Source: a bacterium
GTDB taxonomy: Bacteria > Chloroflexota > Dormibacteria > Aeolococcales > Bog-877
Direction of reading: 5' to 3'
Assembly: GCA_021795235.1 (NCBI GenBank)
Contig: JAJYPP010000004.1
Coordinates: forward strand, 1 to 64,000
Length of the DNA: 64,000 bases
Both the position numbers and the translations under genes were made by a program. The notes under the pieces were generated by a model. The model worked only from the letters and a program-made list of their open reading frames with translations, was not told the DNA's origin and ran no database searches. Numbering within the stretch: the first letter of the stretch is position 1; each line of letters opens with the position of its first letter. This document shows positions 236 through 38,675 of this stretch, in pieces.

Positions 236-573
236 TCAGTCCGTCCGGTTCATGCGCAGCGGCCAGGGGCACCCATTGGCATCCAGAGAGCGCCACTCAC
301 GGTCGAGCAGGGCAAAGTCGAGCTCATCGCTCCAGCGGTTCTTGAACCACCCATTTTCAATCTGGTGCGCCTCTTGGCGCATTCCAAGGCGAGTTGCGAG
401 TCGCGCCGAGGCCTCGTTCTCGCCGTCCACACGCGCAATAATCCGACGCAGCTTCAACTCGTCGAAGCCAAGATGCAGCATGGTGTGGACCGCTTCGGTG
501 GCATAGCCACGGCCACCGTAATCGGGATGAAACACGTAACCGATCTCACCGGTCCGGTGGAGCTCGGAGCTGA
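236..573 (-). pseudogene. GNAT acetyltransferase, C-terminal part (cut by IS607 copy 1)
   Basis: This is the C-terminal half of a RimJ/RimL-like GNAT N-acetyltransferase. Reading leftwards it encodes TGEIGYVFHPDYGGRGYATE, the acetyl-CoA pyrophosphate-binding motif (GGRGYA) of the family, then the usual ENxAS and LGM segments. The reading frame is open right up to the transposon edge near 573. The N-terminal half lies beyond the element at 2934-3204. Removing the element joins the halves in frame into about 202 codons, the normal length for this family. The gene was therefore intact before insertion and should now be non-functional. The substrate is unknown. Confidence 0.85.
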
Positions 574-618
574 AGAGTGACGATTAGCTACCATTTACAT
601 ACCAACAAGTGTGCTAAC

Positions 619-1224
619 ATGGCTTTCATGACCACGTATCCACCGCGGATCATCGGCCGGATGATCGGACGGTCCGTCTCCACGCTGCAGCGTTGGGATC
701 GTGAAGGGATCCTGAAAGCGCGCCGGACCCCCACCGACCGGCGCTACTACACCCACGACGACTACCTCGCGGTCATAGGCCAGAAGCCCAAAGAGCGCAC
801 GGTCGTGACCTACACACGGGTGTCGAGCGCGGGCCAGAAGTCCGATCTCGCTAGTCAACGGGCAGCGGTCGAGCAGTTCTGCGTCGCCTCCGGCAGGTCC
901 GTTGCTGAACGCTTCGAGGATGTGGGGAGCGGGCTGAACTACCGCCGCAGGAACTTCCTGCAACTGATGGAGAAGGTGGAGCAAGGTCTGGTTTCGGAGA
1001 TCGTCATCGCTCACAAGGACCGCCTGGTGCGATTCGGGTTCGAGTGGTTCGAGAAGTTCGCCCAGGATCATGGCTGCGCGATCGTGATCATGAACGCGCA
1101 GTCGCTCTCCCCCGAGGAAGAGATGGTTCAGGAGCTGCTGTCCATCGTGCACTGCTTCTCCTCGCGCCTTTACGGGCTTCGGCGCTACAAGAAAGCCGAC
1201 ATCGTGGCGATGGTGAGCCAGTGA
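619..1224 (+). CDS. tnpA: IS607-family serine recombinase (resolvase)
   Basis: This enzyme excises and integrates the element using an active-site serine and 2-bp staggered cuts. Residues ~8-50 form a MerR-type helix-turn-helix that ends in DRRYYTHDDY. The catalytic domain begins at TYTRVSSAGQKSDLASQ, where the RVSS serine is the nucleophile, and continues with the family's EIVIAHKDRLVRFGFEWFE and SPEEEMVQELLSIVHCFSSR segments. It appears complete at 201 aa. ATG 619 or 628 are the first good starts. The in-frame GTG at 577 would lie in the terminal repeat region. No clear Shine-Dalgarno is visible. Its stop overlaps the tnpB start by 4 nt (GTGA), so the two are probably translationally coupled. 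Confidence 0.92.
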   Translation: MAFMTTYPPRIIGRMIGRSVSTLQRWDREGILKARRTPTDRRYYTHDDYLAVIGQKPKERTVVTYTRVSSAGQKSDLASQRAAVEQFCVASGRSVAERFEDVGSGLNYRRRNFLQLMEKVEQGLVSEIVIAHKDRLVRFGFEWFEKFAQDHGCAIVIMNAQSLSPEEEMVQELLSIVHCFSSRLYGLRRYKKADIVAMVSQ

Positions 1225-2906
1225 CCGACGAAGACCTTCCCAAGCGCTGTGTGCGGAGACCCTCGAAGCGGCTGAACAAAGGCAAGGCTGCGGAGCTTCG
1301 ATCGCTGATCGGGCTGTACGCCAAGGAGAAGGACGACCATCTGCGGGCTCTTGCTCCCAAGACGTTTGCCGAGTACCGCGGTCATCGCGGCTACCGGGAC
1401 CAGCTGTTGCGCTCCGGCTATGCCAGTCCCCACGGACTGCAGGCCCGGATGTGGAAGATGGCTGTGCAAGACGCCCACGAGACGATGGGGAAGTTCTGGG
1501 CGGCGCAGGCGGAAGACGTGAAGCCATTGGTACACCGGAAGAAGCACTGGTCGGAGGCGATGCGCCACTACGCCTTCTGGCTGCTCTTCAGTCCCGGACG
1601 AGTGGCGGCCCTCTACGCGGGGGAGACACCTATCCCCTCCTTGTTCACCATCCCCAAGGAGGAGCGCTCGGCGGTCGTGAAGATCCTCGGGCGGGAGGTG
1701 CGCCGTCGCGTGCGGCGCCTGCCGCGGGTGCGGAAGGCGCGGAGCGCCTGTTTCGACACGGACATGTACACGGTCACGACCACCCCCACCGGGCTCCAGC
1801 AGGTCGAGCTCATGGGGCTCCGGCCTCGCCAGCGCATCCGGGTCCCGCTGCTTGGCGCTGCGACGATCGCGGGCAACCTTCGAGTGGTGATGGAGCCAGT
1901 AGAGAGAGTCGTGGAAGTCCACACCATGTTCGACCTGGATCAGCCTGCGGATGCGCCCGATGGTGGCGACGCCGCGGTGGACATCGGGCAGAGCGAGGTG
2001 CTGACCGACGACCACGGGAAGCGCTACGGCAAAGGGTTTGGAAAGTTGCTGGCGAGGGCGTCGCAGCGGGACCTCGACAAGGGGCGCGCCCGGGGCAAGC
2101 TCCACGCGGTCCGCAGGAAGGCCCTGGCCAGGGGCGAGCGAGCGAAAGCACGACGCGTCCGGGTCAACAACCTCGGCTATCAGAAGATGGACCGGAGGCG
2201 GCAGCGCGCTCAGGCCGAATGTGCCCGCCAGGTGAACACCGCCTACAACGAGTTCCTGGTCCACCGCACGCCGGGGCGCTTCGCTCAGGAGAAACTGGAC
2301 TTCCGCGGCAAGGCCAAGTCGAAGGCCATGTCCAGGCGCACCGTTCAGATGCGCAACACGACCATCAACGAACGATCTCACTTCAAGGCATCGGCAGCAG
2401 GTAGCTGTCGTCAGCGGGTCAACCCGGCTTATAGCTCGCAACCGTGTCCCCGGTGTGGGTACGTCCACGCCAACAACCGCAACGGGGACCGGTTCGTCTG
2501 CCTCTTCTGCGGGTGGGCGGGCTGTGCGGACTGGGTTGGAGCGCACAACCTGCGAAACAGGATGGATGATCCCGAGATCACCCTTTGGATGCCGAAGGAC
2601 CGGGTTCGGACCATCCTGCTCAGCAGGTTCTCGCAGCGGACGGGCGAGGCACCCGATTGGAAGCCGCAAGGTGACTGTTCCGGGGTGCAAGACTCCAGGC
2701 ACCAGGCGACCACGGCCAGACGTGCCGTGGGAGCGGAGACGCGAGTGGGAGGCGGCGGGGAATCGTCCACCGTCGCCGTCATGGACCACCCTGGTCAACC
2801 GGAGAGCGAAACGGGCAAGGAAATCCTCGGCCGGCGGCAGGGCCGTCGCGACGGGGGAAAACCATGCCGAAAAGGACAGGACCATGACGTGTCCGCAGCC
2901 AGATAG
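1221..2906 (+). CDS. tnpB: TnpB RNA-guided nuclease (IS607-associated, 561 aa)
   Basis: TnpB proteins are omega-RNA-guided, TAM-dependent DNA nucleases related to Cas12. The RuvC triad appears intact: D254 in AAVDIG, E357 in FAQEKLDFRG and D437 in GCADWVGAHN. A four-cysteine zinc ribbon (C409, C412, C427, C430) sits before the last motif. The length is well above the ~400 aa typical of the family. About 250 residues precede RuvC-I, and a basic tail of about 120 residues follows RuvC-III. That tail is encoded over the 3' end of the element, where omega-RNAs are normally specified, so part of it may be read-through coding of an RNA gene. GTG 1221 was chosen because of the GTGA overlap with the resolvase stop. 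Confidence 0.88.
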   Translation: MTDEDLPKRCVRRPSKRLNKGKAAELRSLIGLYAKEKDDHLRALAPKTFAEYRGHRGYRDQLLRSGYASPHGLQARMWKMAVQDAHETMGKFWAAQAEDVKPLVHRKKHWSEAMRHYAFWLLFSPGRVAALYAGETPIPSLFTIPKEERSAVVKILGREVRRRVRRLPRVRKARSACFDTDMYTVTTTPTGLQQVELMGLRPRQRIRVPLLGAATIAGNLRVVMEPVERVVEVHTMFDLDQPADAPDGGDAAVDIGQSEVLTDDHGKRYGKGFGKLLARASQRDLDKGRARGKLHAVRRKALARGERAKARRVRVNNLGYQKMDRRRQRAQAECARQVNTAYNEFLVHRTPGRFAQEKLDFRGKAKSKAMSRRTVQMRNTTINERSHFKASAAGSCRQRVNPAYSSQPCPRCGYVHANNRNGDRFVCLFCGWAGCADWVGAHNLRNRMDDPEITLWMPKDRVRTILLSRFSQRTGEAPDWKPQGDCSGVQDSRHQATTARRAVGAETRVGGGGESSTVAVMDHPGQPESETGKEILGRRQGRRDGGKPCRKGQDHDVSAAR

Positions 2907-2953
2907 CTGTGGCCACGTGTGGTTATGTTTTTGGGAACAGCAACAACACATCG
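2781..2953 (+). ncRNA. Candidate omega-RNA and guide, IS copy 1
   Basis: This placement is by analogy. TnpB omega-RNAs normally overlap the 3' end of tnpB, run to the right end of the element, and take their guide from the flanking DNA. The tnpB stop is at 2906 and the element ends near 2933, so the scaffold should lie mostly within the tail of the gene. The guide would begin at about 2934 with GGAACAGCAACAACACATCG from the GNAT gene. The 5' boundary given is nominal. I did not fold the RNA. Confidence 0.35.
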
Positions 2954-3204
2954 CCGATGAGCCCGCCCGTCTCCAGGAGCTCAGCGCCCAGGGTGATGTG
3001 CTGACCCTCGCCGTCCACCTGCTGCCGTACCGATGTGGTCGCGAGCTTCTGGCGCACCGTCTCAATGCCCATCGGCTCGAAGGGAACGTATCGGCAGACC
3101 TCTGGGAGTGATCGGTACGCGACCAGGGAGGCAGCGTCCGCTTCTCTGAGGTGTCGGAGCAACAGACGAGAGGCCATGACGGGGTAGTTCGGGCGGAGTT
3201 CCAT
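2934..3204 (-). pseudogene. GNAT acetyltransferase, N-terminal part (cut by IS607 copy 1)
   Basis: Leftward from ATG 3204 this encodes the start of a GNAT acetyltransferase: ASRLLLRHLREADAASLVAY, then the family's SLPEVCRYVPFEP and an LIGDVLLLF strand. The frame then runs into the transposon and stops after three more codons. The downstream half is at 236-573. With the element removed, the reading runs GDVLLLF, one ambiguous residue, SSELHRTGEIGY, which is the expected order of strands around the acetyl-CoA site. It probably lost function through the insertion, as the fragment lacks the cofactor-binding motif. Confidence 0.85.
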
Positions 3205-35414: not shown

Positions 35415-36158
35415 TTACCTCGCCCGTTCGGACCTCACCAGTTGGCGCAGAGTCAGCAGAGTCTCGCTCGAGACGTCGTCGGGGAGCGAGCAGCCGGGCG
35501 CCACCAGCAGTCGGCCCGGAAGCGATCGGTGGAGCTCCAGCAGCCGGACGCGCTCCGCGGGGCCCACCGGGTCCACTTGGCGCTCGGAGATCCCGCCCAT
35601 CAGGATCCGGCCGGGCAGTTGCGCCGCCCCATCGGCCAGGGAGACCGAGCTCTCGTCATCGCTCCAGCCCAGCGCCTTGACCGGGTACTCAAAGTAGCGC
35701 TCCACCCTCTCCCCCCAACGCGCCGTGGATGTGCAGAACCCGTAAGCCGACATCCCGGGCGCCCACGAGGCCGGCGAGGTCGTAGGGCACCCCGAACTCG
35801 GCGTACTCCGAGTCGGTGAGGACATCCTGACCCCAACAGGAGTAGTAAATCCCATCCGCCCCCAGGCGCACACATTCCTGGGCCAGCTGGCAGACCAAGG
35901 CCCCCAGGGCACCCAGGACCTGATGGGAGACCGCCCTGGGCTCGGCCAGGAGCTCCGGGATCGCCTGCTTGCCACACCAGAGCCCGACCAGCCCAAGTGG
36001 CGAGAAAAGAGTGACCAGAAGCGGATCCGTCGGCTCCAGCTGCTGGCGCAGAAGTTCCACACAGTGGAGATACTCCCGGGCCCGGCCCACGTCTGTGACG
36101 TCGCCGAATGAACGCAGGTGCCGAAGCTGGCGAAATGAGGAGAGCGAAAAGTCCTCGA
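35415..36158 (-). pseudogene. Uroporphyrinogen decarboxylase-family protein, C-terminal part (IS insertion and frameshift)
   Basis: This is the main part of a UroD/MtaA-like (betaine/alpha) barrel protein. The first frame, from the transposon edge, encodes FEDFSLSSFRQLRHLRSFGD, AREYLHCVELLRQQL and IYYSCWGQDVLTDSEYAEF, ending LRVLHIHGALGG and a premature stop. The second frame continues with GERVERYFEYPVKALGWSDD and GRILMGGISERQVDPVGPAE, the usual UroD C-terminal order. One extra C in the C-run at 35711-35716 (G-run in the coding strand) explains the break. The N-terminus is at 38519-38675 beyond IS607 copy 2. Removing the element and one base gives about 300 codons. The family handles porphyrins, methylated amines or one-carbon groups; the role here is unknown. 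Confidence 0.82.
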
Positions 36159-36203
36159 AGAGTGACGATTAGCTACCATTTCCGTACCAACAAGTGTGCT
36201 AAT

Positions 36204-36809
36204 ATGGCTTTCATGACCACGTATCCACCGCGGATCATCGGCCGGATGATCGGACGGTCCGTCTCCACGCTGCAGCGTTGGGATCGTGAAGGGATCCTGA
36301 AAGCGCGCCGGACCCCCACCGACCGGCGCTACTACACCCACGACGACTACCTCGCGGTCATAGGCCAGAAGCCCAAAGAGCGCACGGTCGTGACCTACAC
36401 ACGGGTGTCGAGCGCGGGCCAGAAGTCCGATCTCGCTAGTCAACGGGCAGCGGTCGAGCAGTTCTGCGTCGCCTCCGGCAGGTCCGTTGCTGAACGCTTC
36501 GAGGATGTGGGGAGCGGGCTGAACTACCGCCGCAGGAACTTCCTGCAACTGATGGAGAAGGTGGAGCAAGGTCTGGTTTCGGAGATCGTCATCGCTCACA
36601 AGGACCGCCTGGTGCGATTCGGGTTCGAGTGGTTCGAGAAGTTCGCCCAGGATCATGGCTGCGCGATCGTGATCATGAACGCGCAGTCGCTCTCCCCCGA
36701 GGAAGAGATGGTTCAGGAGCTGCTGTCCATCGTGCACTGCTTCTCCTCGCGCCTTTACGGGCTTCGGCGCTACAAGAAAGCCGACATCGTGGCGATGGTG
36801 AGCCAGTGA
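36204..36809 (+). CDS. tnpA: IS607-family serine recombinase, copy 2
   Basis: Identical in translation to the 619-1224 protein: MerR-type helix-turn-helix followed by the serine recombinase domain with the nucleophile in RVSS. In this copy the frame stays open upstream to 36108, but that extra N-terminal sequence comes from the interrupted host gene and is not part of the element. One silent or non-coding difference (36203, T for C) sits just before the start. The stop overlaps tnpB by 4 nt, as in copy 1. Confidence 0.92.
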   Translation: MAFMTTYPPRIIGRMIGRSVSTLQRWDREGILKARRTPTDRRYYTHDDYLAVIGQKPKERTVVTYTRVSSAGQKSDLASQRAAVEQFCVASGRSVAERFEDVGSGLNYRRRNFLQLMEKVEQGLVSEIVIAHKDRLVRFGFEWFEKFAQDHGCAIVIMNAQSLSPEEEMVQELLSIVHCFSSRLYGLRRYKKADIVAMVSQ

Positions 36810-38491
36810 CCGACGAAGACCTTCCCAAGCGCTGTGTGCGGAGACCCTCGAAGCGGCTGAACAAAGGCAAGGCTGCGGAGCTTCGATCGCTGATCGGGCT
36901 GTACGCCAAGGAGAAGGACGACCATCTGCGGGCTCTTGCTCCCAAGACGTTTGCCGAGTACCGCGGTCATCGCGGCTACCGGGACCAGCTGTTGCGCTCC
37001 GGCTATGCCAGTCCCCACGGACTGCAGGCCCGGATGTGGAAGATGGCTGTGCAAGACGCCCACGAGACGATGGGGAAGTTCTGGGCGGCGCAGGCGGAAG
37101 ACGTGAAGCCATTGGTACACCGGAAGAAGCACTGGTCGGAGGCGATGCGCCACTACGCCTTCTGGCTGCTCTTCAGTCCCGGACGAGTGGCGGCCCTCTA
37201 CGCGGGGGAGACACCTATCCCCTCCTTGTTCACCATCCCCAAGGAGGAGCGCTCGGCGGTCGTGAAGATCCTCGGGCGGGAGGTGCGCCGTCGCGTGCGG
37301 CGCCTGCCGCGGGTGCGGAAGGCGCGGAGCGCCTGTTTCGACACGGACATGTACACGGTCACGACCACCCCCACCGGGCTCCAGCAGGTCGAGCTCATGG
37401 GGCTCCGGCCTCGCCAGCGCATCCGGGTCCCGCTGCTTGGCGCTGCGACGATCGCGGGCAACCTTCGAGTGGTGATGGAGCCAGTAGAGAGAGTCGTGGA
37501 AGTCCACACCATGTTCGACCTGGATCAGCCTGCGGATGCGCCCGATGGTGGCGACGCCGCGGTGGACATCGGGCAGAGCGAGGTGCTGACCGACGACCAC
37601 GGGAAGCGCTACGGCAAAGGGTTTGGAAAGTTGCTGGCGAGGGCGTCGCAGCGGGACCTCGACAAGGGGCGCGCCCGGGGCAAGCTCCACGCGGTCCGCA
37701 GGAAGGCCCTGGCCAGGGGCGAGCGAGCGAAAGCACGACGCGTCCGGGTCAACAACCTCGGCTATCAGAAGATGGACCGGAGGCGGCAGCGCGCTCAGGC
37801 CGAATGTGCCCGCCAGGTGAACACCGCCTACAACGAGTTCCTGGTCCACCGCACGCCGGGGCGCTTCGCTCAGGAGAAACTGGACTTCCGCGGCAAGGCC
37901 AAGTCGAAGGCCATGTCCAGGCGCACCGTTCAGATGCGCAACACGACCATCAACGAACGATCTCACTTCAAGGCATCGGCAGCAGGTAGCTGTCGTCAGC
38001 GGGTCAACCCGGCTTATAGCTCGCAACCGTGTCCCCGGTGTGGGTACGTCCACGCCAACAACCGCAACGGGGACCGGTTCGTCTGCCTCTTCTGCGGGTG
38101 GGCGGGCTGTGCGGACTGGGTTGGAGCGCACAACCTGCGAAACAGGATGGATGATCCCGAGATCACCCTTTGGATGCCGAAGGACCGGGTTCGGACCATC
38201 CTGCTCAGCAGGTTCTCGCAGCGGACGGGCGAGGCACCCGATTGGAAGCCGCAAGGTGACTGTTCCGGGGTGCAAGACTCCAGGCACCAGGCGACCACGG
38301 CCAGACGTGCCGTGGGAGCGGAGACGCGAGTGGGAGGCGGCGGGGAATCGTCCACCGTCGCCGTCATGGACCACCCTGGTCAACCGGAGAGCGAAACGGG
38401 CAAGGAAATCCTCGGCCGGCGGCAGGGCCGTCGCGACGGGGGAAAACCATGCCGAAAAGGACAGGACCATGACGTGTCCGCAGCCAGATAG
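36806..38491 (+). CDS. tnpB: TnpB RNA-guided nuclease, copy 2
   Basis: Identical in translation to the 1221-2906 protein, with the RuvC D/E/D residues and four-Cys zinc ribbon intact and the same long N- and C-terminal extensions. Conservation of both copies without stops suggests recent duplication rather than long-term selection. The 3' end should template an omega-RNA whose guide differs from that of copy 1 after the first seven bases. Confidence 0.88.
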   Translation: MTDEDLPKRCVRRPSKRLNKGKAAELRSLIGLYAKEKDDHLRALAPKTFAEYRGHRGYRDQLLRSGYASPHGLQARMWKMAVQDAHETMGKFWAAQAEDVKPLVHRKKHWSEAMRHYAFWLLFSPGRVAALYAGETPIPSLFTIPKEERSAVVKILGREVRRRVRRLPRVRKARSACFDTDMYTVTTTPTGLQQVELMGLRPRQRIRVPLLGAATIAGNLRVVMEPVERVVEVHTMFDLDQPADAPDGGDAAVDIGQSEVLTDDHGKRYGKGFGKLLARASQRDLDKGRARGKLHAVRRKALARGERAKARRVRVNNLGYQKMDRRRQRAQAECARQVNTAYNEFLVHRTPGRFAQEKLDFRGKAKSKAMSRRTVQMRNTTINERSHFKASAAGSCRQRVNPAYSSQPCPRCGYVHANNRNGDRFVCLFCGWAGCADWVGAHNLRNRMDDPEITLWMPKDRVRTILLSRFSQRTGEAPDWKPQGDCSGVQDSRHQATTARRAVGAETRVGGGGESSTVAVMDHPGQPESETGKEILGRRQGRRDGGKPCRKGQDHDVSAAR

Positions 38492-38538
38492 CTGTGGGCA
38501 CGTGTGGTTATGTTTTTAGGAACAGGACGGGGATATCC
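38366..38538 (+). ncRNA. Candidate omega-RNA and guide, IS copy 2
   Basis: Placed by analogy with TnpB systems, as for copy 1. The tnpB stop is at 38491 and the element ends near 38518. The guide would begin at about 38519 with GGAACAGGACGGGGATATCC from the uroporphyrinogen-decarboxylase-like gene. The scaffold would match copy 1 except at 38498 and 38518. The 5' boundary is nominal and no folding was done. Confidence 0.35.
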
Positions 38539-38675
38539 GGCATCAGCTTGGCGGCGGCCAACTCGTGCTCCCGGTAGAACTCCGCGGTCGACCGCGCCAG
38601 TTCGCGGGGAGAGTCCTGGCGGAAGTGCTTCCAGTACAGCACCGGCAGGACGTCCCCCGTGCGGGGTTGGAGCAT
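38519..38675 (-). pseudogene. Uroporphyrinogen decarboxylase-family protein, N-terminal part
   Basis: From ATG 38675 (TGGAG three bases upstream) this encodes LPVLYWKHFRQDSPRELARS, then STAEFYREHELAAAKLMPDI and PVLF, typical of the UroD-family N-terminus in which the first barrel strand leads to KLMPDIP. The frame runs into the transposon and stops. A longer upstream start near 38762 is possible. Joined with 35415-36158 it reads DIPVLFLEDFSLSS across the junction. Confidence 0.8.

What the first reader, a model, noticed from the sequence alone, without database searches (positions are those of the whole stretch)
573..2940. Both IS607 insertions can be reversed on paper to restore intact genes
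Deleting copy 1 rejoins a GNAT acetyltransferase in frame (about 203 codons). Deleting copy 2 rejoins a UroD-family protein in frame (about 300 codons once a one-base frameshift is also corrected). There is no target duplication, as known for IS607 serine recombinases. The left junction of both starts GAAGAGTGACG and the right junction of both continues GGAACAG, so both target sites carry GGAACAG next to the insertion point. That hints at a real target preference in a family usually described as having little.
Basis: partly seen in the sequence, partly recalled or inferred. Interest (0 to 1): 0.65.

Follow-up and report, generated by a model that had tools for sequence, protein, structure and literature searches.

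The report
IS607 element: GGAACAG is its end
Two copies of a jumping gene interrupt two bacterial genes that are whole in related genomes, but the shared letters GGAACAG that looked like a chosen landing site turn out to be the element's own tail, and the true landing motif is a short GAG on the other side, much as already seen in related elements.

Summary
The sequence facts hold. Two nearly identical IS607-family (tnpA+tnpB) copies interrupt a GNAT gene (572-2940) and a UroD-family gene (36157-38525). Removing 2,363 bp from each restores in-frame genes that align without gaps to uninterrupted relatives.

The inference that both targets carry GGAACAG is wrong; it is the element's right end. 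(1) Two further copies in the same genome end in it before unrelated flanks. (2) Relatives with only 37-47% TnpB identity also end in GGAACAG, although their left flanks differ. (3) In the gene hit by one further copy, 15 of 15 uninterrupted orthologues encode Tyr (TAC) where GGAACAG requires TTC, so the empty site lacks it. (4) It pairs perfectly with CTGTTCC about 260 nt upstream, as the last stem of a TnpB guide RNA would.

The crossover dinucleotide is most likely AG. The real target preference is on the left, 5'-(R)GAG, here GAAGAG in both copies. It resembles the purine-rich TAM (AGGAG) already measured for other IS607 TnpBs. GAAGAG (target) and GAACAG (element) differ by one base, which produced the illusion. 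New member of a known kind. In passing: AGGAG-type relatives insert mostly between Shine-Dalgarno and start codon.

The parts
572..577 (+). Copy 1: GAAGAG, target-derived left flank (TAM-like motif); 576-577 AG is the inferred crossover dinucleotide
   Evidence: Register of 2,363 bp fixed by orthologues; left flanks of relatives all end in GAG; right copy excluded as target by C112 orthologues
578..2940 (+). Copy 1 of the IS607-family element (2,363 bp counting one AG)
631..1224 (+). tnpA, serine transposase with N-terminal MerR-type domain
   Evidence: NF033518 transpos_IS607 E 2.9e-61; PF00239 and PF13411
1221..2906 (+). tnpB, RNA-guided-nuclease-type protein, 561 aa
   Evidence: PF07282 E 1.2e-10, above gathering; NF040570 E 8.5e-13, below its cut-off
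2675..2681 (+). CTGTTCC, 5' arm of the stem that pairs with the right end
   Evidence: 7/7 complement of GGAACAG; same context in L156, L157, L164 and, as CTGCTC/GAGCAG, in Methylobacter copies
2934..2940 (+). GGAACAG, right end of copy 1 (2939-2940 AG = inferred crossover), 3' arm of the stem
   Evidence: Same in C171, C112, L156, L157, L164 before unrelated flanks
2941..2960 (+). Host flank of copy 1 that would be the TnpB guide
   Evidence: Inference from known TnpB architecture; flanks after AG are unrelated among copies
236..571 (-). C-terminal half of the interrupted GNAT gene
2941..3204 (-). N-terminal half of the interrupted GNAT gene (start codon at 3204)
36157..36162 (+). Copy 2: GAAGAG, target-derived left flank
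36163..38525 (+). Copy 2 of the element
38260..38266 (+). Copy 2: CTGTTCC stem arm
38519..38525 (+). Copy 2: GGAACAG right end
35430..36156 (-). C-terminal part of the interrupted UroD-family gene, with a reading-frame change near 35712
38526..38675 (-). N-terminal part of the interrupted UroD-family gene

Best explanation
An IS607-family transposon inserted independently into a GNAT gene and a UroD-family gene. TnpA, a serine recombinase, is inferred to have recombined a circular form of the element with the targets across a 2-bp AG. The element runs from TGACGATTAG (578) to GGAAC-AG (2940). GGAACAG is its right end and most likely the last stretch of the TnpB guide-RNA scaffold, base-paired to CTGTTCC at 2675-2681; the host DNA after it would be the guide. 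The target contributed the left-hand GAAGAG, a purine-rich (R)GAG motif that would serve as the TnpB TAM. After excision, TnpB could recognise the rejoined site through GAAGAG plus the sequence matching the guide. Shown here: ends, register, orthologue lengths, conservation of the right end, absence of GGAACAG from the C112 empty site, and pairing potential. Inferred: crossover at AG, circle intermediate, guide-RNA and TAM function.
For: Orthologues fix the register at 2,363 bp. Four of four right junctions in this genome read GGAACAG before unrelated flanks. Relatives L156 (TnpB 47%), L157 and L164 (36-37%, two copies of one genome) keep GGAACAG while their left flanks read GGAGGAG, TAGGAG and TTAGAG. 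Fifteen of 15 orthologues of the C112 target gene lack GGAACAG and 11 of 15 read GTAGAG at the junction. GGAACAG is the exact complement of CTGTTCC in the same context in six of six copies with that end tested apart from L164 (one G-U), with a compensatory GAGCAG/CTGCTC in Methylobacter copies. Left flanks of the relatives end in GAG and all right ends of this wider group end in AG. The AGGAG TAM was measured for the related ISFba1 group (PMC11061315).
Against: No same-species empty site is held. The nearest UroD orthologue (G002) and five family members carry CTG (GAACAG) rather than CTC (GAAGAG) at the ambiguous codon, although the codons are synonymous and order-level relatives have CTC. 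The left ends of C171 and C112 are missing from the assembly. In some relatives the left boundary was placed by eye. The stem does not extend clearly to L159, L161, L170 and L043.
Confidence: 0.9

Rival explanations
1. One reading: the targets carried (G)GAACAG. Crossover was at GA or AA, the right-hand CAG is target DNA, and TnpA prefers GAACAG.
For: Four of four right junctions in this genome carry it. The nearest UroD orthologues read GAACAG at the site.
Against: C112 orthologues have GTA-NAG, not GAACAG (15/15). Relatives as distant as 36% TnpB identity keep GGAACAG with different left flanks. L159 and L161 end CAGTAACAG with no GA. The bases pair with an internal arm. The first G of GGAACAG is outside the 2,363-bp register in any case.
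Confidence: 0.07
2. The whole 572-2940 block, GAAGAG and GGAACAG included, is element (2,369 bp) and the flanks were simply joined.
For: Both ends are shared by both copies, and 2,369 bp also preserves both reading frames.
Against: It would leave both genes two codons shorter than their orthologues; UroD orthologues carry Leu/Val-Phe at that place without gaps. No dinucleotide would be shared between the junctions for serine recombination. Left flanks of relatives vary upstream of GAG.
Confidence: 0.03

Closest known systems
ISFba1-type IS607 elements (RAGATH-18-associated TnpB; Ren et al. 2024, PMC11061315)
   Same: tnpA-tnpB order; purine-rich motif ending in GAG left of the left end; right end ending in AG with unrelated flanks after it (four Baileyella copies: AGGAG on the left, GAGTGGCAG on the right).
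   Different: TnpB only about 22-25% identical over part of its length; no RAGATH-18 match in the window element; motif here GAAGAG rather than AGGAG; host GC-rich.
ISXfa1 (IS607 TnpB, NAR 2023, PMC10711439)
   Same: Nucleotides at the right junction belong to the guide-RNA scaffold, not to the guide; a base-pairing (pseudoknot) involves the bases next to the guide.
   Different: GG crossover and GGG TAM there; here the inferred crossover is AG and the inferred scaffold end is GGAACAG.
IS607 and ISC1926 (PMC4058570, PMC6188088)
   Same: Serine transposase with N-terminal DNA-binding domain, no terminal inverted repeats, no target duplication, recombination across a shared dinucleotide.
   Different: GG termini and (G)GG targets there; AG here.

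Membership tests
IS607 family | tnpA is a serine recombinase with N-terminal MerR-like DNA-binding domain | tested here: met
   NF033518 E 2.9e-61, above cut-off; PF13411 at 10-45 and PF00239 at 58-184
IS607 family | tnpB of the RNA-guided nuclease type downstream of tnpA | tested here: met
   PF07282 E 1.2e-10 above gathering; NF040570 E 8.5e-13 but below its cut-off of 100 bits, so divergent
IS607 family | No target duplication; a shared crossover dinucleotide at both junctions | tested here: met
   Register of 2,363 bp with AG at both junctions; AG as the actual crossover is inferred
IS607 family | Crossover dinucleotide GG (most described members) | tested here: not met
   GG is absent from the left junction GAAGAGTGACG; GG is described for most, not all, members (PMC6188088), so it is not treated as defining
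ISFba1/RAGATH-18 group | RAGATH-18 RNA downstream of tnpB | tested here: not met
   No RAGATH-18 match at E up to 10 in 1200-3100
TnpB RNA-guided nuclease system | Guide RNA expressed from the right end; cleavage next to a TAM | not testable with these tools
   Needs small-RNA sequencing and a TAM depletion assay

The most novel reading that the evidence does not exclude
An AG-crossover branch of IS607 in which one dinucleotide serves three purposes: the transposase overlap, the last bases of the TAM, and the closing pairs of the guide-RNA stem (CU...AG). Transposase and TnpB RNA would then have to change together. A by-product in the AGGAG-type sister group is insertion exactly between Shine-Dalgarno and start codon.
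Probability: 0.4. Interest if true: 0.5.

Novelty: new member of a known kind. Interest (0 to 1): 0.3.

Why it matters
It corrects a tempting misreading: letters shared on the outer side of two insertions look like a target preference but are the element's own end. It also gives borders (2,363 bp, inferred AG crossover, GAAGAG target, GGAACAG end) for a divergent IS607 group with large TnpBs, and so a predicted TAM that can be tested directly.

Tried and rejected
Frame restoration as the only test: rejected, because 2,363 and 2,369 bp both keep frame. Reading the GAACAG codons in the nearest UroD orthologues as proof of the target: set aside, because CTG/CTC is synonymous and order-level relatives have CTC. 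Rfam search of the element: only chance hits. Viral contigs and plasmids: no close TnpB relative. Class-wide search of 110 genomes for TnpB: no hit outside the own genome at E 1e-20. DNA search of 150 relatives for the element: only short weak matches. Left ends of C171 and C112: absent from the assembly. A seven-pair count on alignment A2 is not used as evidence, because the L156 stretch given there had its 5' arm cut off and the stem is otherwise invariant; one search replaces it. A short alignment with typed-in loops is likewise not used.

Full report
What is there. Two copies of one element lie on the + strand at 572-2940 and 36157-38525, 2364 of 2369 bases identical. Each carries an IS607-family serine transposase (NF033518, E 2.9e-61) and a TnpB-type protein (PF07282, E 1.2e-10). 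Copy 1 interrupts a GNAT acetyltransferase and copy 2 a UroD-family gene, both read on the - strand. The UroD remnant also changes reading frame near 35712 relative to its orthologues.

Register of the insertion. Deleting 2,363 bp or 2,369 bp would each restore both frames, so frame alone cannot say whether the six bases GAASAG belong to the target. Uninterrupted orthologues decide it. Fifteen close UroD orthologues in the same genus, family and order align without gaps and have a Leu-Phe or Val-Phe pair at the junction. The close GNAT orthologues likewise match the 2,363-bp register. Hence the target held six bases of the form GAA-(C/G)-AG between the two flanks. The left copy of these six (GAAGAG) and the right copy (GAACAG) differ at one base, and only one of them is target DNA. 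The leading G of GGAACAG is outside this register, so GGAACAG as a whole was never in the target.

Which copy is target. The own genome has two more copies, cut at their left by contig ends (C171, C112; 94 and 93% identity). Both end TTTTT(G/A)GGAACAG and then diverge. The C112 copy lies in a gene whose orthologues are present in relatives; it looks like an FMN-dependent hydroxy-acid dehydrogenase (assignment from sequence and memory, no database test). In 15 of 15 uninterrupted orthologues the residues after W-(F/Y)-Q are Leu-Tyr-Trp, with codons CTN-TAC-TGG. On the element strand the empty site therefore reads CCA-GTA-NAG, in 11 of 15 CCAGTAGAG, and never GGAACAG.

Relatives agree. A copy in a Methylacidiphilaceae MAG (TnpB 47% identical) and two copies in one Nitrospirae MAG (36-37%) end in GGAACAG before unrelated flanks, although their left flanks read GGAGGAG, TAGGAG and TTAGAG. 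More distant relatives have other constant right ends (CAGTAACAG, AAGAGCAG, GAGTGGCAG), each ending in AG, and left flanks ending in GAG. The dinucleotide common to both junctions in all of them is AG, so AG is the inferred crossover; this step is inference.

Why GGAACAG is kept. It is the exact reverse complement of CTGTTCC about 260 nt upstream (2675-2681) in c1, c2, C171 and C112. The same 7-bp match is present in L156 and L157, and in L164 with one G-U pair. In Methylobacter copies the right end is GAGCAG and the upstream arm CTGCTC, a compensatory change. The consensus fold also closes on this stem, although one of its six sequences had its 5' arm cut off. The scaffold of an IS607 guide RNA includes the junction nucleotide (PMC10711439), so GGAACAG most likely closes the scaffold and the flank after it is the guide. 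Expression was not tested.

Target preference. The real preference is on the left: GAAGAG in both window copies and (R)GAG in the wider group. For the related ISFba1 group, AGGAG next to the left end is the measured TAM (PMC11061315), and classical IS607 inserts at GG with (G)GG preferred (PMC6188088). The notion that IS607 targets are nearly random has thus already been replaced by a short motif; this element is another case, with AG instead of GG.

Caveats. No same-species empty site was available. The nearest UroD orthologues carry CTG rather than CTC at the ambiguous codon. The window lies in a fragmented assembly (174 contigs, 92% complete, 7% contamination). The two window copies are identical over their interior but differ at five positions all within about 75 terminal bases, which hints at gene conversion or assembly collapse.

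Side result. In the AGGAG-type sister group, 16 of 19 right junctions lie 3-12 nt before an ATG that opens a frame of at least 50 codons, against 18% (64/359) of AGGAG sites in the same contigs (binomial p about 6e-10; selection against hits inside genes not controlled, copies of one genome counted separately). The motif is the Shine-Dalgarno sequence. The ISFba1 paper has no occurrence of 'ribosome', 'Shine-Dalgarno' or 'start codon' in its text. The window copies themselves lie inside genes.

Noticed in passing
L021-L077 (IS607 relatives in Lachnospiraceae and other Bacillota): 16 of 19 insertions sit directly after AGGAG and 3-12 nt before an ATG opening a frame of at least 50 codons, that is, between Shine-Dalgarno and start codon; background for AGGAG sites is 18%.
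   Followed up: partly
597, 599, 618, 2913, 2933 (and +35585): All five differences between the two copies lie in the terminal 47 and 28 nt; 2.29 kb of interior is identical. The right-end pair (C,G) or (G,A) is shared crosswise with C171 and C112, which differ from c1/c2 by about 6% elsewhere. Gene conversion or assembly collapse.
   Followed up: partly
L160, L165, L166, L169: Relatives with TnpB fragments 37-58% identical have a different right end (TTTCAGAGCGG), which may mean a GG crossover in that branch.
   Followed up: no
L009:1908-2267: The C171 copy sits just upstream of a small helix-turn-helix protein gene that looks like the antitoxin of a HigBA-type pair (by eye).
   Followed up: no
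2672-2906: The tnpB reading frame stays open about 78 codons beyond its last residue aligned to relatives, through most of the inferred guide-RNA region, in all four copies of this genome.
   Followed up: no
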